Shown: positions 6,036 through 15,168 of the stretch, piece after piece | Numbering within the stretch: the first letter of the stretch is position 1 | How the letters are laid out: every line of letters begins with the position of its first letter | Assembly: GCF_013409865.1 (NCBI RefSeq) | Contig: NZ_JACCBM010000001.1 | Span: forward strand, 620,001-684,000 | Reading direction: 5' to 3' | Source: Herbiconiux flava | GTDB taxonomy: Bacteria; Actinomycetota; Actinomycetes; Actinomycetales; Microbacteriaceae | Length of the DNA: 64,000 nt | Position numbers and translations under genes: made by a program | Notes under the pieces: generated by a model | Told to the model about the DNA's origin: nothing | Seen by the model: the letters and a program-made list of their open reading frames with translations, nothing else | Databases searched by the model: none

Positions 6036-6608
6036 CTACCCCTCCACCTCCCGCAAGTGCCGGTACTTCCCCTTGAAGTACAGCAGCGGGTCGTGCTTGT
6101 GCCACGACGCCGGGCTCATCTCGTTCACCCGCCCGATCACGATCAGGTGGTCGCCCGCCTCGTGCTCGGCCCAGATGTCGCAGTCGAGCCACATCAGGGT
6201 GTCGGCGATCACCGGGTTGCCCGACGCGGCCGGCGCCCAGTCGATGCCCGCCCACTTGTCGGTGCCCGAGCGCGCGAACTGGTTCGACACGGTGTGCTGG
6301 TGGTGCGAGAGCACGTTCACCGAGAAGCGGCCGGTCGAGCGGATGCGCGGGTAGGTCGTCGACGTCGTCATCACGCTGAACGACACCAGCGGCGGCTCGG
6401 TCGAGACCGAGTAGAACGACTGGCAGGTGAAGCCGACGGGGGCGCCGTCCTCGATGCCGCCGATGATGGTGATGCCCGAGGCGTAGTGCCCGAGCGTGTC
6501 ACGGAACACCCGCGGATCGATGGGCGCGCCCTGGGCGAGGCCCGAAGCGGGCCCGGCAGCGATGTCCGGTGCGGCGCCCGAGGGCGCCCGGTCTGGTGCG
6601 ATTGTCAT
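6036..6608 (-). CDS. Flavin reductase (HpaC/NtaB-type) for a two-component monooxygenase
   Basis: NAD(P)H:flavin oxidoreductase of the flavin-reductase-like (DIM6/NTAB) family, 190 aa. It supplies reduced flavin to a separate oxygenase. Diagnostic stretches are FRDTLGHYASGITIIG, GFTCQSFYSVSTEPPLVSF (flavin binding), RFSVNVLSHHQ, and the C-terminal GDHLIVIGRVNEM...LLYFKGKYR. The start at 6608 is chosen because AAGGAGA lies 7 nt upstream; longer in-frame extension runs into the next gene. A 30-residue Ala/Gly/Pro-rich leader precedes the domain. Two luciferase-like monooxygenases 4-7 kb away are the obvious clients. Confidence 0.88.
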   Translation of the reverse strand: MTIAPDRAPSGAAPDIAAGPASGLAQGAPIDPRVFRDTLGHYASGITIIGGIEDGAPVGFTCQSFYSVSTEPPLVSFSVMTTSTTYPRIRSTGRFSVNVLSHHQHTVSNQFARSGTDKWAGIDWAPAASGNPVIADTLMWLDCDIWAEHEAGDHLIVIGRVNEMSPASWHKHDPLLYFKGKYRHLREVEG

Positions 6609-6624
6609 GTCCGTCTCCTTGCGG

Positions 6625-7167
6625 TCACGCAACCGATGCGGAGTGAGAGGCGGTGGCGCCGGCCACCACGGCCAGCCGCGCGAGGTTCTGCGCGTACTCC
6701 GCCGCGGCCTGCGAGACGATCTCGTCGAGATGGTCCATCTGGCCGGCGACGAAGTAGAGCCCGCGCCCCGGAACGACCGCACCCAGCTCGACGAGCAGCG
6801 GCGCGAGGTTCACGGTCGGACCCATGGCGTGGGTGAGGTCTCCCCCGGTGTGCACCGGGATCGCCGTCACCCCCGCGAGGCCGTTCGCGGGATAGCGGTC
6901 GAGGAACGCCTTGAGGAGCCCGGTGTACGTCGCCTTGTAGGTGGGCGACGCGAACACGGCCAGGTCGCTCGAGGCGACCCGCTCATTCAGGGCGGCCATC
7001 GTGTCGGAGGGCCACGCGAAGATCTCGCCCGTGTGATCGGCGAGGTCGATGATCTCGAGCTCGTACGATCCCGGCACGAGCAGCTTCTCGACCAGGGTCT
7101 CGGCGACCTTGAGCGTGCGCGAGCGCGGCTTGGGGTTGCCGACGACGATGGTGACCTTCAGTGCCAT
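6625..7167 (-). CDS. NADPH-dependent FMN reductase (SsuE/MsuE-like)
   Basis: Flavodoxin-fold FMN reductase of 180 residues. VVGNPKPRSRTLKVAE is the FMN phosphate-binding loop, and FASPTYKATYTGLLKAFLDR is the second flavin-binding signature of the SsuE/MsuE group that feeds FMNH2 to alkanesulfonate and methanesulfonate monooxygenases. It lies 16 bp upstream of the flavin reductase gene on the same strand, so the two form an operon with two different reductases. GAGAAG about 4 nt before the ATG can serve as ribosome site. Confidence 0.88.
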   Translation of the reverse strand: MALKVTIVVGNPKPRSRTLKVAETLVEKLLVPGSYELEIIDLADHTGEIFAWPSDTMAALNERVASSDLAVFASPTYKATYTGLLKAFLDRYPANGLAGVTAIPVHTGGDLTHAMGPTVNLAPLLVELGAVVPGRGLYFVAGQMDHLDEIVSQAAAEYAQNLARLAVVAGATASHSASVA

Positions 7168-7568
7168 TGCTTCTCACTTCATACCGATTGACAGGAAATG
7201 AGGGAGCGGTGCAGCGAGCCGCAGCGCGAGACATCGCATCCCTCAACACTCCACCGAGGTCTTGTGGCTCGGTGGGCCCGCAACGGCTTACGTTGCCCTT
7301 CCAGTATCGGCGCCGGAGGTTTCGGGCGTATTTCGCCAGTCACAATCCGTCAGAGAGCGGATGCGCATCCGCTCGTCAGGCCGGCGCCGGCGGTGGCGCA
7401 GCCGCTCCCCCGCCGCGCGTTCTGGCGCGGAGGAAGTGGCGCAACCGATCCTTCGCGGTGCCGAAACACCGGTGCAACGACGGCAGGACAGACTGACTCC
7501 GCTCGCACCACCTGCACCATTCCCGCGCCTCCGCCCCGCCGGAGCGCCCTTCGACAGATGGAGACGCC
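7168..7568. other. 401-bp divergent intergenic region between FMN reductase and binding lipoprotein
   Basis: No protein-coding region is supported here. The segment holds the two divergent promoters, a perfect 20-bp palindrome at 7355-7374 (listed separately), and a GC-rich inverted-repeat-rich leader before the lipoprotein gene. A short stretch near 7457-7492 vaguely recalls S-box elements, but the core is missing. Its length and position make it the control region of the flavin/transport cluster. Confidence 0.6.
7355..7374. promoter_or_regulatory. Perfect 20-bp palindrome GAGCGGATGC/GCATCCGCTC
   Basis: GAGCGGATGCGCATCCGCTC is a perfect dyad without a central gap, about 200 bp upstream of the lipoprotein ATG and 190 bp from the FMN-reductase start. 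It may be an operator, for example for the GntR/UTRA regulator at 10040, or a product of the genome-wide GGATGC word. The lack of loop bases makes a hairpin role less likely than protein binding. Confidence 0.55.
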
Positions 7569-8747
7569 ATGCCCCGATCCGTTCCCCGCCTCGCCTCAGC
7601 CGTCGGCCTCGTCGCCGTGACGGCGCTGGCCCTCAGCGCCTGCAGCTCCGGCAGCTCGGCCGAGGAGTCCGGCGGGTCCACCCCGGCGGCCGCCGTGGGC
7701 GACGTCGACCTGTCGGGCGTGTGCCCGGCGACCGTCGTCATCCAGACCGGCTGGAACCCGGAGGCCGAGCACGGCCACCTCTACGAGCTGCTCGGTCCCG
7801 ACCCGGTGATCGACGCGACCGCCAAGTCGGTCTCGGGCCCGCTCTACTCGGCGGGCGAGTACACCGGCGTCGACGTCGAGATCCGAGCGGGCGGCCCGGC
7901 GACCGGGTTCCAGCCGGTGTCGAGCCTGATGTACACCGACCCCGACATCCTGCTCGGCTACGTCTCGACCGACGAGTCGATCGCGCAGTCGGCCGACATG
8001 CCCACCACGGCGGTGTTCGCCTCGCACGACATCAGCCCGCTGATGATCATGTGGGACCCGGAGACGTATCCCGACGTGAAGACGGTGCCCGAGCTGGTGG
8101 AGTCGGGCGCGATCATCCGCTACTTCGCGGACACCGCGTACATGCAGTACCTGACCTCGGCGGGCGTCATCCCGGCCGATCAGACGGACGCCTCGTACGA
8201 CGGCACCCCGGCGAACTTCGTGGCCGCCGACGGCAAGGACGCGCAGCAGGGCTACGCTTCGGCAGAGCCCTACGTGTACGAGAACGAGGTGGAGAACTGG
8301 ATGAAGCCCGTGGCCTACCAGCTCATCGACGACCTCGGCTTCCGCCCCTACCAGGACCCGGTGGTCGTGCGCTCCGCCGACGTCACCGAGCAGGCCGACT
8401 GCCTGAAGGCGATCGTGCCCGTGCTGCAGCAGGCGGAGGTCGACTACTTCGCCGACCCGGCTGAGGCGAACTCGCTCATCCTCGACCTGGCCGAGCAGTA
8501 CGACACCGGCTGGGTCTACACCCAGGGCGTCGCCGACTACGCGGTGCAGACGATGATCGAGGACGGCATCTCGGGCAACGGCGACAACGACACCCTCGGC
8601 GACTTCGACGAGGCCCGCGTGCAGGACCTGATGGACAAGGTGATCCCCGTCTACACGACGCAGGGCGTCACCCCCGCCGAGGGCCTCACCCCCGCCGACC
8701 TCGTGACCAACGAGTTCATCGACACGACGATCGGGATGACCGACTGA
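7569..8747 (+). CDS. ABC-type substrate-binding lipoprotein (sulfonate/nitrate/taurine-like)
   Basis: Exported solute-binding lipoprotein, 392 aa. The signal peptide ends in a lipobox, ALSAC, with Cys about residue 25. The rest resembles NMT1/SsuA-type binding proteins for sulfonates, nitrate or thiamine precursors (VDVEIRAGGPATGFQPVSSL, TDPDILLGYVSTDE). The ligand is not deducible. No ABC permease or ATPase is adjacent; the next gene encodes an MFS carrier instead. The protein may therefore work with a transporter encoded elsewhere. AGATGGAGACGCC precedes the ATG; GGAG is a plausible ribosome site. Confidence 0.75.
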   Translation: MPRSVPRLASAVGLVAVTALALSACSSGSSAEESGGSTPAAAVGDVDLSGVCPATVVIQTGWNPEAEHGHLYELLGPDPVIDATAKSVSGPLYSAGEYTGVDVEIRAGGPATGFQPVSSLMYTDPDILLGYVSTDESIAQSADMPTTAVFASHDISPLMIMWDPETYPDVKTVPELVESGAIIRYFADTAYMQYLTSAGVIPADQTDASYDGTPANFVAADGKDAQQGYASAEPYVYENEVENWMKPVAYQLIDDLGFRPYQDPVVVRSADVTEQADCLKAIVPVLQQAEVDYFADPAEANSLILDLAEQYDTGWVYTQGVADYAVQTMIEDGISGNGDNDTLGDFDEARVQDLMDKVIPVYTTQGVTPAEGLTPADLVTNEFIDTTIGMTD

Positions 8748-8788
8748 ACGACCGCACCCCCGGCCCCCTCGCGGGGCGCCCGCTGGGC

Positions 8789-10000
8789 ATGAACGCGCAG
8801 GCGATCCTCGCCTGCGCGTTCATCGCGTCGGCGCAGATGACCTGGGGCGTCATCGTGCCGGCGCTTCCTCTGCTCGTCGAGCGGTTCGGCATCGGCACGG
8901 GCAGCATCGGCCTGCTGATCGCGGCGTTCGCCATCGGGCGGGTGATCGCGAACGTGCCGGCGGGGCTCGCACTCCGGCGCGTGCCGCCTCGGCGCTTCCT
9001 GCAGATCGTCTCGGTGCTGCTCGCGCTGGTGACCGCGGTGACCGGGCTGCTGCCGAGCGAGCCGCTGCTGCTCGCCGCCCGCCTGGTGGCGGGGGTGCTC
9101 GGCGGGGCGGCCGTGACGATCGGCTTCTCGGTGCTCGTGGCGGGAGCGCCGCCCGAGCGCCGGGGCCGCACGATGTCGACCGCGACCGTGGTGATGATGA
9201 GCGGATCCGCCGTCGGCGCGCTGCTCGGCGGAGGCGCGGTGACGGTGCTCGGTGTGGCCGGGGCGTTCGCGGTGGCGGTCGTGCCGCTCGTCGCGTGCCT
9301 CGTCGTCGACCTCGTGCGGCCGGCGACGCACTACTGGGCGGCCTTCGCGCCGAAGAGCGTCGAGCGGGGTGACGACGACGCGACGACGGATGCCCGTGCC
9401 GCCGCACCCCGTCCGCGCCGCCGTCTCCCCACCGGCGCCGGCGCGCTCGTCGTGGGACTCGTGGCAGTCTCCTTCGCCACCTTCCTGGCCCGCTTCGCCG
9501 GCGAGCAGGGGCTGATCCCGGTGCTCGCCTACGACACCGGCGGACTCACGCCGCTGACCCTCGGCGTCGCGATGGCCGCCGGAACCGTGATCAGCATCGC
9601 CGCCCTGCCGGTGGTCGGCCGGCTCGTCGACCGCGGCGCCCGGCTGAGCGTGCTGCTGCCCTCGGCGCTCGTGGGGGCGGGAGCCCTGATGCTCTTCCCG
9701 GTCGTGACGGCGCCGCTCGCCTTCGGCGCCGTGATCGTCGTCTACTACGTCTCGACCAGCGTGGCGGGGGTGGTGCCGAACGTCGTCACCGGCGAGCGCT
9801 TCGAACCCGCCGCCGCCGGCGCGGTGGTGGGGCTCACCCGCACGGCCGGCGACATCGGCGCGGCGGTGGGCCCGCTCGCGGTCTTCGCGCTCGCGGATGC
9901 GGCGGGGGCCCTCGCGGCGGTCTCGGTCATCGCAGCGGTGCTCGTGGCGGCTCTCGTGCTGCTCGCGCCGGCGGTGGCCCGCCGCCCCGGCACGGCGTAG
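8789..10000 (+). CDS. MFS transporter
   Basis: Major facilitator superfamily carrier of about 403 residues with twelve predicted membrane segments in two halves separated by a charged, Arg-rich loop (residues about 185-215). The loop between helices 2 and 3 (GRVIANVPAGLALRRVPPRR) and RGRTMSTATVVMM fit the MFS pattern. Substrate unknown; context suggests the compound handled by the flavin monooxygenases, or its product. The gene follows the lipoprotein by 41 bp. The reading frame is open back to 8744, but only a CTG is available there, so the ATG at 8789 is used. Confidence 0.82.
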   Translation: MNAQAILACAFIASAQMTWGVIVPALPLLVERFGIGTGSIGLLIAAFAIGRVIANVPAGLALRRVPPRRFLQIVSVLLALVTAVTGLLPSEPLLLAARLVAGVLGGAAVTIGFSVLVAGAPPERRGRTMSTATVVMMSGSAVGALLGGGAVTVLGVAGAFAVAVVPLVACLVVDLVRPATHYWAAFAPKSVERGDDDATTDARAAAPRPRRRLPTGAGALVVGLVAVSFATFLARFAGEQGLIPVLAYDTGGLTPLTLGVAMAAGTVISIAALPVVGRLVDRGARLSVLLPSALVGAGALMLFPVVTAPLAFGAVIVVYYVSTSVAGVVPNVVTGERFEPAAAGAVVGLTRTAGDIGAAVGPLAVFALADAAGALAAVSVIAAVLVAALVLLAPAVARRPGTA

Positions 10001-10039
10001 CGGCATCCCGGCCGGCGCAGCACGCCCGCTGCGCCGGCC

Positions 10040-10870
10040 CTACAGGTCGCCGCGCGACGGCTCCAGCGCGATCCGCACCTGGTCGGAGCGCTGCCGCCCG
10101 TGGTAGATCATCACCACGGTGCCGCCCGGCTCCCGCACGGTCGTCTCGATGAACAGCAGCGGCGTGCCGACCTCGGTCGCGAGCAGCTCGGCGGCCGAGA
10201 GGTCGGCCGAGATGGCGCTGATCTGCCGGTCGGCCGTCAGCCGCTCGTGCCCGAACCGGCTCTCGATGATCTCGAACACGTCGTCGTTCGCGTCGGCCTG
10301 CCCGAACTCGTCGCCGGGCCGCAGCGGCAGGTAGTAGGTGCGCAGGGAACCGGGGCGCCCCTTGTAGAGGATGACCCGCTCGAACACGGCCATCCGATCG
10401 ACCGTCTCGTCGAACAGGGCGGCCATCGGCGACGGCACCGCCGTCGTCTCGCGCCAGCCGATCAGCACGTAGTCGTGCTCGAGGGGCGGCGGGTCGATCT
10501 TCAGTTGATCCAGCAGCCGGTCGGTGCGCCAGGTCAGCGGGCGCGGGTTCGCATAGGTGCCCTGGCCGGCGGTCCGGCCGATGGTGTTCTCCTGCACGAG
10601 CATCTGCATCGCGATGCGGGCGGTGTTGCGGGTGCAGGAGAACTCGCGGGCGATCTCCTCGTCGCTCGGCAGCCGCTCCCCGTCGGTGGCGCCCGAGAGC
10701 ACGAAGGCCGAGACGAGGTCGCGCAGACGCCGCGCCTCGTCCTGCCGGCGGTGCTGGCCGAGGTCGAGGATCTTGTCCTCGGTGAAACTGCGCCGGCGTG
10801 GCGGGCCGGTGGGGCGGCCGGCGCCGGGCGGCGTCCGCGCATCCTGGCCGGTCGGATTCTCGGGGCTCAC
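10040..10870 (-). CDS. GntR-family regulator (HutC/UTRA type)
   Basis: Transcriptional regulator of 276 residues with a basic, disordered leader of about 35 residues, an N-terminal winged HTH (residues about 55-110; LPSDEEIAREFSCTRNTARI is typical GntR) and a C-terminal UTRA effector domain (ISAISADLSAAELLATEVGT, PLLFIETTV). Effectors of this class are small metabolites. It lies 12 bp downstream of the luciferase-like monooxygenase operon on the same strand, so it is likely the local regulator of the 6-15 kb cluster. Confidence 0.88.
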   Translation of the reverse strand: MSPENPTGQDARTPPGAGRPTGPPRRRSFTEDKILDLGQHRRQDEARRLRDLVSAFVLSGATDGERLPSDEEIAREFSCTRNTARIAMQMLVQENTIGRTAGQGTYANPRPLTWRTDRLLDQLKIDPPPLEHDYVLIGWRETTAVPSPMAALFDETVDRMAVFERVILYKGRPGSLRTYYLPLRPGDEFGQADANDDVFEIIESRFGHERLTADRQISAISADLSAAELLATEVGTPLLFIETTVREPGGTVVMIYHGRQRSDQVRIALEPSRGDL

Positions 10871-10882
10871 GGTCTCAGACTC

Positions 10883-12229
10883 TCACGCGAAGGCGGGCAC
10901 CCCGAGGGTGTCGCGCAGGGTCGTGCCGTCGTAGCGCGTGCGGAACCGTCCGCGCCGCTGCAGCTCGGGCACGAGCAGCCCCACCACGTCGATCAGGTCA
11001 CGGGGCGTGACCTGCGGATGCGCGACCATGAAGCCGCCCCGGCTGCCGGTGGCCTCGTACGACTCCTCGAGGTAGTCGGCCACCTCGGCCGCGCTGCCGG
11101 CCACGGTGTGCTCGTAGCCGGTGGCGACCTTCCAGAGCGAGTCGAAGAACTCCTCGCGGCTCAGCTCGGTGTCGGCGCCGTGCTCGTTCACCAGGTCGCG
11201 GAAACCCATCGGGCTCGCCTGCTTCGCGATCACCTCGGCCGTCAGCTCGGTCAGCGTGAAGCGGGCCGGCAGCTTGGCGAAGTCGTAGCCCGTGTTGTTG
11301 GCGAACTGCGCGGCGGCGGCCTCGGGCGGCAGGAGGTCGGCGAGCTGCTGCTTGCGGCGGAGCGCGTCGTCGGTGGTCTCCCCGACGATCAGCTGCAGGT
11401 CCCAGAGGATGCCGACCCGCGACGGATCGCGCCCCTGCTCGAGCAGCGCCTCGTCGAGCGCGGCACGGTGCTTCGCGCGGTCGGCGTTGTCGAAGGCGCC
11501 GCCGAACACGACGTCGGCGAAGGTCGACGAGGCGCGGATGCCTCGCGGCGACCCTCCCGCCTGAATCAGCACCGGCGCCTGCTGCGGGCTCGGCACCGAG
11601 TTGAGCGGACCCTTCACCTGGAAGAACTCGCCCGCGTGGTCGATCGGCCGGATGCGGCCGGGTTCGGCGACCATCCCGGTCTCCTTGTCCCAGACGAAGG
11701 CGTCGCGGTCGACGCTGCGCCAGAGCTCCTGGCAGACGGTGACGAACTCCTCCATCCGGCGGTAGCGGGCGTCGTGGTCCATCAGCGCGTCGAAGCCGTA
11801 GTTGGCCGCATCCGCTCCCCGGCTGGAGGCCACCACGTTGAAGGCCATCCGGCCCTGGGTGACGAGGTCGAGCGAGTTCAGCAACCGGGCGACGTAGAAC
11901 GGATGCATGAAGGTCGACGAGTAGGTCAGCCCGAAGCCGATGTGCTGCGTCTGCTGCGCGAGGGCCGCGATGAACGGGCTCATGTCCTGCCGCGGGTAGC
12001 CGATGCCCCACTCCACGGCCGCGTCGATCGAGTCGCCGTAGGTGGACGGGATGCCGGAGCCGTCGCCGAAGAACACCATGTCGAGGCAGCCGCGCTCGGC
12101 GGCGAGCAGCAGCTCGGTGTACATCCGCAAATCGGGGAAGGTGCGGCCCTCCCACGACCCGGGCAGCCGCCACCGGCCCTGGTGGTGCGAGAACGAGAGG
12201 TCGAGGGCGAGGCTCATCTGGTAGGGCAC
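10883..12229 (-). CDS. LLM-class flavin monooxygenase (NtaA/SnaA/DszA type)
   Basis: FMNH2-dependent, luciferase-like monooxygenase of 448 residues, the size of the NtaA/SnaA/SoxA/DszA group, which oxidises compounds such as nitrilotriacetate, pristinamycin and sulfones using FMNH2 from a separate reductase. Signatures are FGLTYSSTFMHPFYVARLLN, LDLVTQGRMAFNVVASSRG, QAGGSPRGIRASSTFADVVF and the C-terminal VAHPQVTPRDLIDVVGLLVP. The GTG start at 12229 is given; an ATG at 12217 would remove only four residues. It follows the RutA-like gene by 6 bp. Substrate unknown. Confidence 0.88.
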   Translation of the reverse strand: MPYQMSLALDLSFSHHQGRWRLPGSWEGRTFPDLRMYTELLLAAERGCLDMVFFGDGSGIPSTYGDSIDAAVEWGIGYPRQDMSPFIAALAQQTQHIGFGLTYSSTFMHPFYVARLLNSLDLVTQGRMAFNVVASSRGADAANYGFDALMDHDARYRRMEEFVTVCQELWRSVDRDAFVWDKETGMVAEPGRIRPIDHAGEFFQVKGPLNSVPSPQQAPVLIQAGGSPRGIRASSTFADVVFGGAFDNADRAKHRAALDEALLEQGRDPSRVGILWDLQLIVGETTDDALRRKQQLADLLPPEAAAAQFANNTGYDFAKLPARFTLTELTAEVIAKQASPMGFRDLVNEHGADTELSREEFFDSLWKVATGYEHTVAGSAAEVADYLEESYEATGSRGGFMVAHPQVTPRDLIDVVGLLVPELQRRGRFRTRYDGTTLRDTLGVPAFA

Positions 12230-12235
12230 GGGCGG

Positions 12236-13303
12236 TCAGCCTTTCGTCGGCAGGTGGTCGAGCAGGGGCATGACCTCGGTGCCGAAGCGCTCGAGGCCCT
12301 CCTCGAAGTCGTCGAAGGTGAGCATCGTGCCGGCCGTTCCGGGCACCGCCGCGATGGCGTTGAGGTGGTCGGCCACGGTCTGCGGCGATCCGACGAGGGC
12401 GCGACCGCCGTAGAACGGCGAGACGTCGGCGCGGTGGCTCGCGGCCACGGCCGCGCTCGAGCCGTCGGTGCTGGTGTCGTTGGAGTACTCGCGCACCATC
12501 CCCTCCACCGCGCCCCGGTCGACCCCGCGCTGGTAGAGCTCGACCTTGCGGGCCGCATCGGCATCCGTGTCGCCCATCACGAGGAGGGTCGTCGCGAACG
12601 AGCCGGGCGTGCGGCCGAGGCTCTCGCTCTCGGCGGCGAGGTGGGCGTTCGAGGCGGCCACCTCCTCGGCGCTCTGGCCGGAGCCGAAGTGGTAGTCGGC
12701 GTACTCGGCCACGAAGCGGCGGCCGCGCGGCGAGGAGCCGGCCGAGATGAGGTCGATGTGCCCGACGGGGGTCGGCAGCACCTCGCAGTCCTCGATGTCG
12801 AAGTACTCGCCGTGGAAGGTGACGCGGCCGGTCTCCCACGCGATGAGCAGGATCTGGGTGAACTCGCTGAGGTAGTCGTAGCGGTAGCCGTAGTAGTCGT
12901 CGCCGCGCCAGGCGCCCATCTGGGCGTACTCGCTGCGGTTCCAGCCGGCCACCAGGTTGATGCCGAAGCGGCCGCCCGAGACCTCGTCGATCAGCTGCGC
13001 CATCTTCGCCACCACGATCGGGTTGTAGCTGAGCGGCGAGACGGTGGCGTAGAGCTTGATGGTGCTCGTGATCGGGGCGAGCGACGCCATCAGGGTCATC
13101 GGGTCGATCGTGTGGTTCCAGTGCTGAGTCTCGCCGCCGTAGCCGCGGTACTTCAGCATCGCGAGGGCGAAGTCGAGGCCGTAGTGCTCGGCGCGCTCGA
13201 CGATGCTCCGCTGCAGGGCGAACGTCGGCTCGTACTGCGGGGAGGTGGTCGAGAGGATCCAGCCGTTGTTGCCGACGGGGAGGAAGACGCCGTAGCTGAC
13301 CAT
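12236..13303 (-). CDS. LLM-class flavin monooxygenase, RutA-like
   Basis: FMN-dependent monooxygenase of 355 residues closely resembling RutA, the enzyme that opens the pyrimidine ring of uracil. The similarity is visible in GVFLPVGNNGWILST, AEHYGLDFALAMLKYRG, ISGGRFG-like VSGGRFGINLVAGW, and EYAQMGAWRGDDYYGYRYDY. The C-terminal MLTFDDFEEGLERFG also matches. RutB-F partners are absent, so uracil need not be the substrate. AGGAG lies 6 nt before the ATG. It is cotranscribed with the asparaginase-fold gene upstream and the NtaA-type gene downstream. Confidence 0.87.
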   Translation of the reverse strand: MVSYGVFLPVGNNGWILSTTSPQYEPTFALQRSIVERAEHYGLDFALAMLKYRGYGGETQHWNHTIDPMTLMASLAPITSTIKLYATVSPLSYNPIVVAKMAQLIDEVSGGRFGINLVAGWNRSEYAQMGAWRGDDYYGYRYDYLSEFTQILLIAWETGRVTFHGEYFDIEDCEVLPTPVGHIDLISAGSSPRGRRFVAEYADYHFGSGQSAEEVAASNAHLAAESESLGRTPGSFATTLLVMGDTDADAARKVELYQRGVDRGAVEGMVREYSNDTSTDGSSAAVAASHRADVSPFYGGRALVGSPQTVADHLNAIAAVPGTAGTMLTFDDFEEGLERFGTEVMPLLDHLPTKG

Positions 13304-13337
13304 GGTGGTGCTCCTGTTCTGCGGGGCTGGCGGTTGG

Positions 13338-15008
13338 CTAGTGGGTGTCGAAGACGGTCTGGTACTCGGCCACCGCGGCGCGGATCGCGTCGAGCTCGGC
13401 CGGCGTCGGCGCCTCCGGGTCGGCGGGCAGCGGGAGCGCCCCGAACTTCAGCAGGCACGCCATCAGCAGGATGCGCGCCTTCGGCGCCGAGAGGTTGCTG
13501 CCCCGGATGAACAGGCCGCCGATCGTCGACTGCCCGAACGCGTAGCCGCCTCCGCCGCGGCCGACCGCCACCACGGGCATCCCGCGGAAGACGCCCTTCA
13601 GCAGCGCCGCCCGCATGGACTCGTAGACGCCGCCGTAGGGCGCCGAACCCTCGGCCACCAGGCCGGAGAGCGGGTGGTCGCGCAGGTTCTTCTCGATCCG
13701 GGCGAGGATCTCGACCTCGCTGTCGGCACTGTCGCTGAAGTCGTCCTGACCGTAGTTGACGTAGCGGGCGATGGTCACCTTCGGCATGGCCTCGGGCCGG
13801 AGGTGACCGGCGTCGTCGCGGGTCACGACGGCGTCGCCGTTCAGGCCGGGCACGGCATCCGGAAGCCTGTCGAGGCGCAGCGCCGAGGTGGAGGTGTGGC
13901 GGGCGACCGGCACGAAGGAGAGCACCGGGTCCTCGACCGTGTTGCCCACGATGCCGCCGTGGCCGCCGTAGGCGATGTAGCCGCCGGGACGCGCATCCGC
14001 CTTCTGCACCTCACGGCTGGTGAAGACCTGGCCGTTCTGGATCATCACGGCGCCGACCCGGTCGTCGCCCTGTTCGTCGGCCCAGACGCCCGAGGCGATG
14101 TAGTTGACCGACTGCACGAGGTTGTGGTCGCCGTCGTTGCCGAAGACGCCGTGGCCGTACTGCGAGCAGTTGCCGATCAGGGGGCGGCGGGTGGGGATGA
14201 CGAGGTTCAGCCAGTACACCGTCTCCTCGGTGGTGGGGCTGCCCTCGAGCCAGATGGCGCCGTCGTAGTCGCCGTTCGTCAGGGTGTCGTAGACGATGTT
14301 CGTCAGGGCGGCCAGGGTCGGCAGCGCCGGCTCCTGGCGCATGGGCATGTAGGGGAAGAAGTCCTCGCCGAGCACCTCGGGCGGCAGGTCGCCGTGCTCG
14401 CTGCCGAGGAGCGCGGAGTCGGTGCGCTCGGCCGCCGGCTGCCCCTTCGTGTAGCCGCCGGAGGGCGCCGCCCGCACGAAGTCGAAGTCGGCCACGCCGC
14501 TCATCAGGTTGTTGCCGCCGTAGCCGTCGAGGCCGAATCGGTCGATCTCGGCCACGATGCGGGAGGCGTCGGGGTAGAACAGCTGCCGGGCGGTGCCGTT
14601 GTCGTCGAACGGGCCGTCCCAGGGCTCGCCGTTCGCCTGGGTGGCGGCGTAGGGCAGCGGGAACGGGCCCTTCGCCGGGTCGAGGGTGACCTCGTAGACG
14701 GGGGTCCAGCCGTCGCGCGCGTCAGCGCTGAACTCGCCCGACGCCGGGTCGAGCCAGCCGTCGACCGGGCCGTACAGCTCCTGAGCGTCCTTTTCGAGCG
14801 GATGCGCGGAGAAGGCTTTCACGTACGCGGTCACCGGCGCGGCCAGCTGCTGGGCGCGAAGCGACTCGGGCAGGCTCTCGTCGGCGCCGGCGAGCCCACG
14901 CGCCTGGCGCACCGACTGGCTCGTGCGCAGCGCTGCACTGTTCTGGATGGTGGCACGGGGCCCCGAGAAGATCACCACGGAGGCGCGGGAGGCGGGTGAG
15001 AAGGTCAC
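13338..15008 (-). CDS. Divergent asparaginase-superfamily protein with altered active site
   Basis: Large (556 aa) member of the asparaginase/glutaminase fold; classical enzymes have about 330. Thr20 in PRATIQN matches the nucleophile Thr of GGTIA. EGSPTTEETVYWLN (residues 255-268) aligns with HGTDTMEET, so the second catalytic Thr-Asp pair is Ser257-Pro258. NDGDHNL and VQKAD (Lys336) match the ADGPFNL and catalytic-Lys segments. The C-terminal GLVAEGSAPYGGVYESM, then KARILLMACLLKFG, complete the fold. About 160 extra residues lie between the first and second motifs. No signal peptide is seen. It is the first gene of a likely four-gene operon with two flavin monooxygenases and a GntR regulator, suggesting an amide or ring-opened N-compound as substrate, or a non-catalytic role. 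Confidence 0.7.
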   Translation of the reverse strand: MTFSPASRASVVIFSGPRATIQNSAALRTSQSVRQARGLAGADESLPESLRAQQLAAPVTAYVKAFSAHPLEKDAQELYGPVDGWLDPASGEFSADARDGWTPVYEVTLDPAKGPFPLPYAATQANGEPWDGPFDDNGTARQLFYPDASRIVAEIDRFGLDGYGGNNLMSGVADFDFVRAAPSGGYTKGQPAAERTDSALLGSEHGDLPPEVLGEDFFPYMPMRQEPALPTLAALTNIVYDTLTNGDYDGAIWLEGSPTTEETVYWLNLVIPTRRPLIGNCSQYGHGVFGNDGDHNLVQSVNYIASGVWADEQGDDRVGAVMIQNGQVFTSREVQKADARPGGYIAYGGHGGIVGNTVEDPVLSFVPVARHTSTSALRLDRLPDAVPGLNGDAVVTRDDAGHLRPEAMPKVTIARYVNYGQDDFSDSADSEVEILARIEKNLRDHPLSGLVAEGSAPYGGVYESMRAALLKGVFRGMPVVAVGRGGGGYAFGQSTIGGLFIRGSNLSAPKARILLMACLLKFGALPLPADPEAPTPAELDAIRAAVAEYQTVFDTH

Positions 15009-15168
15009 GCTCGAAGAGTAGGACGCGCCTGTTTCACCCGCGTTGCGGCCGTGTGTTGGCCGCGCTTCGCCACCCTGGGCCGGCGGCGCGGCCCGGGATC
15101 ACGCGGGCGCACCCGCCCCTCCGACGGGCTGCGCCGGTCGCGCGGCCGGCGCCCGGGTGCGCCCCGGG

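What the first reader, a model, noticed from the sequence alone, without database searches (positions are those of the whole stretch)
6036..15008. Unusual flavin-monooxygenase cluster with asparaginase-fold protein
Within 9 kb lie two different flavin reductases, an NtaA/SnaA-type and a RutA-type luciferase-like monooxygenase, a large asparaginase-fold protein as first gene of their operon, a GntR/UTRA regulator, an MFS carrier and an orphan binding lipoprotein. RutA is known to open the pyrimidine ring, and NtaA relatives oxidise N- or S-containing substrates, but the Rut partner genes are missing. The combination suggests an oxidative ring-opening or N/S-dealkylation pathway followed by an amide-handling step; I know of no described system with this gene set.
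Basis: partly seen in the sequence, partly recalled or inferred. Interest (0 to 1): 0.72.

Follow-up and report, generated by a model that had tools for sequence, protein, structure and literature searches.

The report
Putative heterocycle-degrading flavin monooxygenase cluster
In an actinobacterium of the genus Herbiconiux, a small group of neighbouring, probably co-regulated genes (two oxygen-using flavin enzymes, an unusual relative of asparaginase, a regulator and uptake proteins) probably breaks open an unidentified nitrogen-containing ring compound, and it is a variant of a wider kind of gene group that we did not find described.

Summary
Asp–RutA-like–DszA-like–GntR form a tight operon, syntenic in 11 of 11 examined places whose Asp is about 69% identical or more (Herbiconiux, Subtercola, Salinibacterium). 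In 9 Herbiconiux/Subtercola genomes the divergent binding-protein gene is kept in 9 and the MFS gene in 8. A motif shared by the two divergent promoters occurs only at these two places in the 3.85-Mb genome. The same genome and four others of its class carry a related module: RutA-like, isochorismatase-type hydrolase, a DszA-like enzyme 55–59% identical to the window's, and a NitT/TauT-type importer. In the window the asparaginase-fold protein stands in the hydrolase's place. The RutA-like protein keeps RutA's O2 pocket but is not the Rut equivalog; no RutA or RutB over cut-off is in the genome. The asparaginase-fold protein keeps Thr and Lys of the active site but lacks the Asp that anchors an amino-acid substrate. 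Best reading: oxidative opening of a cyclic amide or ureide, then amide hydrolysis. Substrate, reactions and the role of the DszA-like enzyme are unknown. New variant of a known kind.

The parts
6036..6608 (-). Flavin reductase, HpaC/HsaB/RutF-like (PF01613)
   Evidence: PF01613 141.6 bits; HsaB 189 bits (cut-off 230), RutF 74.5 bits (cut-off 254.75)
6625..7167 (-). NADPH-dependent FMN reductase, SsuE-like (PF03358)
   Evidence: PF03358 85.5 bits; SsuE 81.9 bits (cut-off 164.05)
7437..7467 (+). Putative shared operator/promoter element TGGCGMARCS-N16-GAAAC upstream of the binding-protein gene
   Evidence: one of only two matches in the 3.85-Mb genome; exact in 8 of 9 Herbiconiux/Subtercola genomes at this promoter (the ninth, L016, differs by one base); absent from both Salinibacterium loci
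7569..8747 (+). Substrate-binding lipoprotein of a NitT/TauT-like family
   Evidence: only a weak NMT1 match (13 bits, E 0.094); some relatives named nitrate ABC transporter substrate-binding protein; two paralogues in the same genome
8789..10000 (+). MFS carrier
   Evidence: PF07690 129.6 bits; a 55% homologue follows DszA2 in L110 and a 47% one in L111
10040..10870 (-). GntR/UTRA transcription regulator, last gene of the operon
   Evidence: PF00392 + PF07702; syntenic in 11 of 11 places
10883..12229 (-). DszA-like (NtaA/DmoA family) FMN-dependent monooxygenase
   Evidence: TIGR03860 370 bits over cut-off 279.7; best solved match DszA 5tlc, 233 bits; 9 of 12 DszA active-site positions kept, His316 is Asn
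12236..13303 (-). RutA-like FMN-dependent monooxygenase
   Evidence: TIGR03612 379 bits below cut-off 498.3; RutA 6sgl 337 bits; L65, T105, N134, V136, W139, F224 (E. coli numbering) all kept
13338..15008 (-). 556-aa asparaginase-fold protein, first gene of the operon
15031..15072 (-). Putative shared operator/promoter element TGGCGMARCS-N27-GAAAC, starting 64 nt upstream of the asparaginase-fold gene
   Evidence: the second of two genome matches; present in 9 of 9 Herbiconiux/Subtercola genomes, absent from both Salinibacterium loci

Best explanation
This is a probably GntR-regulated accessory catabolic module for an N-containing ring compound, most likely a cyclic amide or ureide of pyrimidine or purine-breakdown type. 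Proposed working: (1) uptake by the binding lipoprotein (using an ABC permease encoded elsewhere) and/or the MFS carrier; (2) the flavin reductases supply FMNH2; (3) the RutA-like enzyme cleaves a ring amide through a flavin-N5-peroxide; (4) the asparaginase-fold enzyme hydrolyses the exposed amide or ureido group, in the place held by isochorismatase-type hydrolases in the paralogous module; (5) the DszA-like enzyme makes a second oxygenolytic cut. Shown here: gene content, synteny, a shared promoter motif, the recurring module, kept active-site residues. Inferred: substrate class, order of steps, importer pairing, regulation by this GntR, and all reactions.
For: Operon synteny 11 of 11. A motif shared by both promoters has only two matches in the genome and is conserved in 9 genomes. 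The genome's second module reads RutA2, isochorismatase (PF00857), DszA2 (55% to the window's DszA-like), with a divergent SsuA/NMT1-type binding protein, ATPase and permease. All 5 non-self DszA places at E<=1e-130 among 394 class genomes lie within about 0.8 kb of a RutA-like gene with an isochorismatase between; both reductase types are in the same cluster in 4 of the 5. RutA's O2-pocket residues are intact. The asparaginase fold keeps Lys and, by motif, the nucleophile Thr. Binding-protein paralogues lie 2-7 kb from a true allantoinase (562 bits, cut-off 357.85), an 8-oxoguanine-deaminase-like protein, a PucR regulator and a DUF1989 protein.
Against: No substrate or product is known and nothing was assayed. 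The role of the DszA-like enzyme is unexplained. The reductases are adjacent in only 3 of 9 Herbiconiux/Subtercola genomes. The model's confidence is under 50 at residues 19-28 and 334-349, which hold the proposed Thr and Lys, so active-site geometry is not established. The link of the binding-protein family to purine/ureide genes rests on neighbours in one genome. Binding proteins of related modules are weakly sulfonate-like (SsuA 43-55 bits, cut-off 163.5), which fits a sulfur compound as well. RutA-like genes at 44-45% in G601, G690 and G773 stand without importer or DszA-like gene. Neither Salinibacterium locus carries the motif.
Confidence: 0.56

Rival explanations
1. Organosulfur assimilation: the DszA-like and RutA/SfnG-like enzymes with an SsuE-type reductase release sulfite from a sulfone or sulfonate, and the hydrolase removes an amide side group.
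For: Best solved match of the large monooxygenase is DszA; the RutA-like protein also matches SfnG (154 bits); SsuE-like reductase; binding proteins of related modules are weakly SsuA/taurine-like.
Against: RutA scores far above SfnG (379 against 154 bits). DszA His316 is Asn. In the modules with a DszA-like gene an amidase-type gene is present. I noticed no sulfur gene by eye in the flanks read; no search for one was made.
Confidence: 0.21
2. A plain alternative uracil/thymine pathway: the RutA-like enzyme acts on uracil as in E. coli and the asparaginase-fold protein replaces RutB.
For: Six RutA pocket residues kept; RutF/HpaC-type reductase present; no RutA or RutB over cut-off in the genome.
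Against: Below the RutA equivalog cut-off. In a 65-row tree the window protein lies in a clade with 100/99 support that excludes the six rows named RutA or taken from E. coli. RutC, RutD, RutE and RutG are not among the eight genes. Uracil breakdown has no known need of a DszA-like enzyme.
Confidence: 0.14
3. The genes are a loose island of unrelated catabolic genes and the RutA-like and DszA-like enzymes act in different pathways.
For: The genome has 26 luciferase-family matches; Asp homologues elsewhere lack these neighbours; RutA2 occurs without DszA in 8 of the 12 other genomes with an importer-linked RutA2 that I read.
Against: Synteny 11 of 11, two promoters sharing a motif unique to them in the genome, and pairing of RutA-like and DszA-like genes in the second module.
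Confidence: 0.06

Closest known systems
Rut pyrimidine pathway of E. coli (RutA-G)
   Same: RutA-type FMN monooxygenase with intact O2-pocket residues, a RutF/HpaC-type flavin reductase, an amide-hydrolase step predicted next
   Different: Not the RutA equivalog; no RutB over cut-off in the genome; RutC, D, E, G not among the eight genes; has a DszA-like enzyme, GntR regulator, binding protein and asparaginase-fold hydrolase
DszA/BdsA dibenzothiophene sulfone monooxygenase
   Same: Best solved match of the 448-aa monooxygenase; 9 of 12 active-site positions kept
   Different: His316 is Asn, Gln80 is Ile, Leu230 is Gly; no DszB or DszC among the eight genes
Type II L-asparaginase
   Different: About 230 residues longer; Thr-Asp pair is Ser-Pro, so the amino-group anchor is gone; 43 bits against the family cut-off 314.3
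RutA2-isochorismatase-DszA2-ABC module found here in the same genome and in G615, G093, G637, G735
   Same: DszA-like enzyme 55-59% identical, RutA-like enzyme, binding protein of NitT/TauT kind; in the four other genomes both reductase types, and in G093 and G637 an MFS homologue
   Different: Isochorismatase instead of the asparaginase-fold protein; ATPase and permease present; RutA2 from another clade; no reductase in the 18 kb read of the own module
Riboflavin/lumichrome catabolism (RcaE and lum cluster)
   Same: Actinobacterial clusters; RcaE is an FMN enzyme of the same superfamily and lum opens a pyrimidine ring
   Different: RcaE is a weaker match (148 bits against 233 for DszA); lum uses hydrolases, a P450 and a thiamin-dependent decarboxylase (PMC12746152, first of six parts and passages seen)

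Membership tests
RutA (TIGR03612 equivalog) | Score over curated cut-off 498.3 | tested here: not met
   379.4 bits
RutA (TIGR03612 equivalog) | O2-pocket residues L65, T105, N134, V136, F224 and neighbouring W139 | tested here: met
   All six identical in the window protein; roles from PMC7662398 section 7 part 1 and PMC10005588 passages
Rut pathway | Partner RutB in the genome | tested here: not met
   No match over cut-off in the own genome; best 56.8 bits against 377.95
Rut pathway | Activity on uracil | not testable with these tools
   Needs an assay
NtaA/DmoA FMN monooxygenase subfamily (TIGR03860) | Score over curated cut-off 279.7 | tested here: met
   370 bits
DszA sulfone monooxygenase | Active-site His20, Asp59, Ser139, His156, Arg159, Tyr160, Ser231, Phe246 | tested here: met
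   All eight identical (residues from PMC11134501 passages)
DszA sulfone monooxygenase | His316 | tested here: not met
   Asn312 in the window protein
L-asparaginase | Fold | tested here: met
L-asparaginase | Thr-Asp-Lys triad with the Asp anchor (E. coli T89, D90, K162; roles recalled) | tested here: not met
   Ser257-Pro258 and Lys336; in the 38 aligned family members Pro 38, Lys 38, Ser 37
L-asparaginase | Score over type II cut-off 314.3 (TIGR00520) | tested here: not met
   43.3 bits
Riboflavin lyase RcaE | Closest relation by sequence | tested here: not met
   RcaE 5w48 148 bits against DszA 233 bits

The most novel reading that the evidence does not exclude
The window and the paralogous module together define an undescribed actinobacterial route for dismantling a nitrogen (perhaps also sulfur) heterocycle, in which two flavin-N5-peroxide-type oxygenases of different families act in one pathway and an asparaginase-fold enzyme that has lost its amino-acid anchor serves as the ring-fragment amidase, interchangeable with isochorismatase-type hydrolases.
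Probability: 0.37. Interest if true: 0.7.

Novelty: new variant of a known kind. Interest (0 to 1): 0.5.

Why it matters
Flavin-N5-peroxide chemistry is assigned to few enzymes (RutA, DszA, HcbA1 and some others; PMC7662398 and PMC8283759, passages seen). A conserved module that pairs a RutA-type with a DszA-type enzyme gives a compact, testable case for what else this chemistry does. It also points to a family of long asparaginase-fold proteins (the 120 best hits listed are 50% identical or more, mostly metagenomic) as likely amidases of non-amino-acid substrates.

Tried and rejected
Riboflavin/lumichrome catabolism: considered because RcaE is of the same superfamily and from a related genus; rejected because DszA matches better and the lum genes are of other kinds (PMC12746152, part seen). 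E. coli RutA Glu292 as a substrate marker: dropped, the position varies throughout the rows compared. Known RNA family in the window: none at gathering thresholds. The asparaginase-fold family as a marker of the pathway: rejected. No RutA- or DszA-like match lies in the DNA held (3.3-21.7 kb each, some with little flank) of 17 of 17 loci L021-L037 (tblastn 1e-8), nor in L065-L068, which stand for 4 of the 14 family places. There its neighbours are isochorismatase + NitT/TauT ABC (L065-L068) or, by eye in 8 loci (L025-L028, L031, L033, L034, L037), an FmdA-like acetamidase/formamidase gene (one of them, L028, scanned); in L021, L022, L024, L035 and L036 I saw no clear amide-handling partner. 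Biotin, thiamin, ergothioneine and sulfonamide breakdown were thought of from memory only and not tested. Contexts of five genomes with RutA-like matches (G589, G621, G670, G723, G760; 45-46%) were not read. G591's module lies near a contig end, so a lost partner cannot be excluded. Gene calls in fetched loci are by a simple GC-frame script; some antisense frames were called wrongly (for example L102 10395-14283, corrected). Of the rows grouped as Asp-linked in the tree, one (P0149) falls among rows whose context I did not read, so Asp linkage is not shown to have one origin. The estimate of about one chance match of the promoter motif per genome was made by hand, in no call.
Full report
WHAT IS THERE. 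The window lies in a 3.85-Mb genome whose Asp gene is 99% identical to that of Herbiconiux sp. VKM Ac-1786 and 96% to that of H. gentiana. On the minus strand an operon runs from an asparaginase-fold gene (Asp, 13338-15008), through a RutA-like (12236-13303) and a DszA/NtaA-like monooxygenase (10883-12229), to a GntR/UTRA regulator (10040-10870). The gaps are 34, 6 and 12 bases. Divergent to it run a binding lipoprotein (7569-8747) and an MFS carrier (8789-10000). Beyond these lie an SsuE-like FMN reductase (6625-7167) and an HpaC/RutF-like flavin reductase (6036-6608) on the minus strand.

CONSERVATION. Among 398 genomes of the window's family (Microbacteriaceae, from the Herbiconiux match) there are 14 near-full-length Asp places in 13 genomes (E below 1e-127). 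All 10 with about 69% identity or more have RutA-like, DszA-like and GntR in the same order; the 4 with 54% or less (L065-L068) have no RutA- or DszA-like match in the 10-18 kb read. One more Herbiconiux (L018), found in the genus search, has the order too, so 11 of 11. In the genus search 7 of 16 genomes have Asp, so the operon is accessory. In 9 Herbiconiux/Subtercola genomes the binding-protein gene is kept in 9, the MFS gene in 8, and the two reductases beside it in 3. In two Salinibacterium genomes (L063, L064) a NitT/TauT-type importer with another binding protein stands directly beside Asp (the permease was recognised by eye), with another MFS gene, and a flavin reductase (55%) in L063. 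Asp and RutA-like hits also share contig lengths in three further cases (61546, 10942 and 8438 bases; the first named Rhodococcus sp. NPDC060084), which suggests linkage there (contigs not read).

ONE REGULON. The upstream regions of Asp and of the binding protein share TGGCGMARCS followed by GAAAC after 27 or 16 bases. The pattern was read off these promoters. In the whole genome it occurs at exactly these two places, and the reversed control pattern at none. By a rough hand estimate about one chance match per genome would be expected, so the weight lies on conservation: the Asp element is present in 9 of 9 genomes, 64 bases before the start in each (starts of L018 and L019 as), and the binding-protein element in 8 of 9 (the ninth differs by one base). 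Neither Salinibacterium locus has it. That the operon's GntR binds it is inference.

A SECOND MODULE IN THE SAME GENOME. At contig positions about 2.4257-2.4333 Mb lie RutA2 (36% to the window's RutA-like), an isochorismatase-family hydrolase (PF00857, 122 bits) and DszA2 (55% to the window's DszA-like), with a divergent SsuA/NMT1-type binding protein, then an ATPase and a permease; no relative of the two reductases lies in the 18 kb read. Of 394 genomes of the class, 5 have a DszA-like match at E<=1e-130. Apart from the query itself the five places (own second module and G615, G093, G637, G735; 55-59%) lie within about 0.8 kb of a RutA-like gene, with an isochorismatase between. The four in other genomes also have both reductase types in the cluster, and two (G093, G637) a homologue of the window's MFS (55% and 47%). 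RutA2 also occurs with the importer and isochorismatase but without a DszA match in G500, G473, G733 and G673, and with the importer but neither partner in G776, G657, G769 and G591 (tblastn 1e-6). Of the other contexts read, G600 has importer parts, two RutA-like genes and a flavin reductase; G616 has a RutA-like gene (52%) beside a NitT-like binding protein named by eye, on a 5-kb contig; G601, G690 and G773 have a RutA-like gene (44-45%) without importer or DszA-like gene. So the recurring core is importer + RutA-like + hydrolase, with DszA-like and reductases added in some.

THE RUTA-LIKE ENZYME. It scores 379 bits on the RutA equivalog (cut-off 498.3) and 337 bits against solved RutA. The O2-pocket residues known from RutA (L65, T105, N134, V136, F224, and W139 beside them) are kept (roles from PMC7662398 section 7 part 1 and PMC10005588 passages; changes of T105, N134 and V136 abolished RutA activity except T105S). 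Glu292 of RutA is Arg here but varies across the rows compared. In a 65-row tree the window protein sits in a 33-row clade (100/99) apart from the six rows that are named RutA or are E. coli RutA; RutA2 is a separate deep clade, and the program warns that long branches meet there. The genome has no RutA or RutB over cut-off.

THE DSZA-LIKE ENZYME. It is a member of the NtaA/DmoA subfamily (370 bits over 279.7) with DszA as best solved match. Of 12 DszA active-site positions checked, 9 are kept; His316 is Asn, Gln80 is Ile, Leu230 is Gly (positions from PMC11134501 passages). It is therefore likely an active FMN monooxygenase whose substrate need not be a sulfone (inference).

SUBSTRATE HINTS. 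Some relatives of the lipoprotein are named nitrate ABC transporter substrate-binding protein. Its two paralogues in the genome lie within 2-7 kb of a true allantoinase (562 bits, cut-off 357.85) and an 8-oxoguanine-deaminase-like protein (253 bits, cut-off 532), with their own ATPase and permease, or of a PucR-type regulator, a DUF1989 protein and a flavin reductase. This points to ureide-like compounds, weakly. The related modules' binding proteins are weakly sulfonate-like, which keeps the sulfur rival alive.

LITERATURE. Eight searches of the held library listed no paper that, by its listing, describes this gene set. Six papers were opened, none read whole: passages of PMC10005588, PMC11134501, PMC8283759 and PMC6946804, passages and part of section 7 of PMC7662398, the first of six parts and passages of PMC12746152. 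Subscription journals are mostly not held.

VERDICT. The reactions, the substrate and the reason for two monooxygenases are open.

Noticed in passing
L102:5664-13323 (G000:C1 about 2425664-2433323): Second module in the same genome: RutA2, isochorismatase, DszA2, divergent SsuA-type binding protein, ATPase, permease; a third NtaA-like enzyme lies at L102:14414-15778.
   Followed up: yes
L102:8870-9292 (-); similar ORFs in L109, L110, L112-L114, L119-L121, L123, L124: A small protein of about 140-166 aa recurs beside the RutA2 modules (likeness judged by eye); the L102 copy has no Pfam hit below E 0.1.
   Followed up: partly
L026 and L028: Tandem copies of the asparaginase-fold gene in alphaproteobacterial MAGs, beside FmdA-like acetamidase/formamidase genes.
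   Followed up: no
L019:16132-21484: In Subtercola the cluster is flanked by another MFS gene, an alpha/beta-hydrolase-like, an aldehyde-dehydrogenase-like and a 3-hydroxyisobutyrate-dehydrogenase-like gene (named by eye), possibly downstream steps.
   Followed up: no
L133:3545-8860: A paralogue of the binding lipoprotein sits with a PucR regulator, a DUF1989 protein and a flavin reductase.
   Followed up: partly
window 13338-15008: The last residue of the asparaginase-fold family is a histidine in 38 of 38 aligned members, and an HPLE motif near residue 70 is invariant in them; neither has an assigned role.
   Followed up: no
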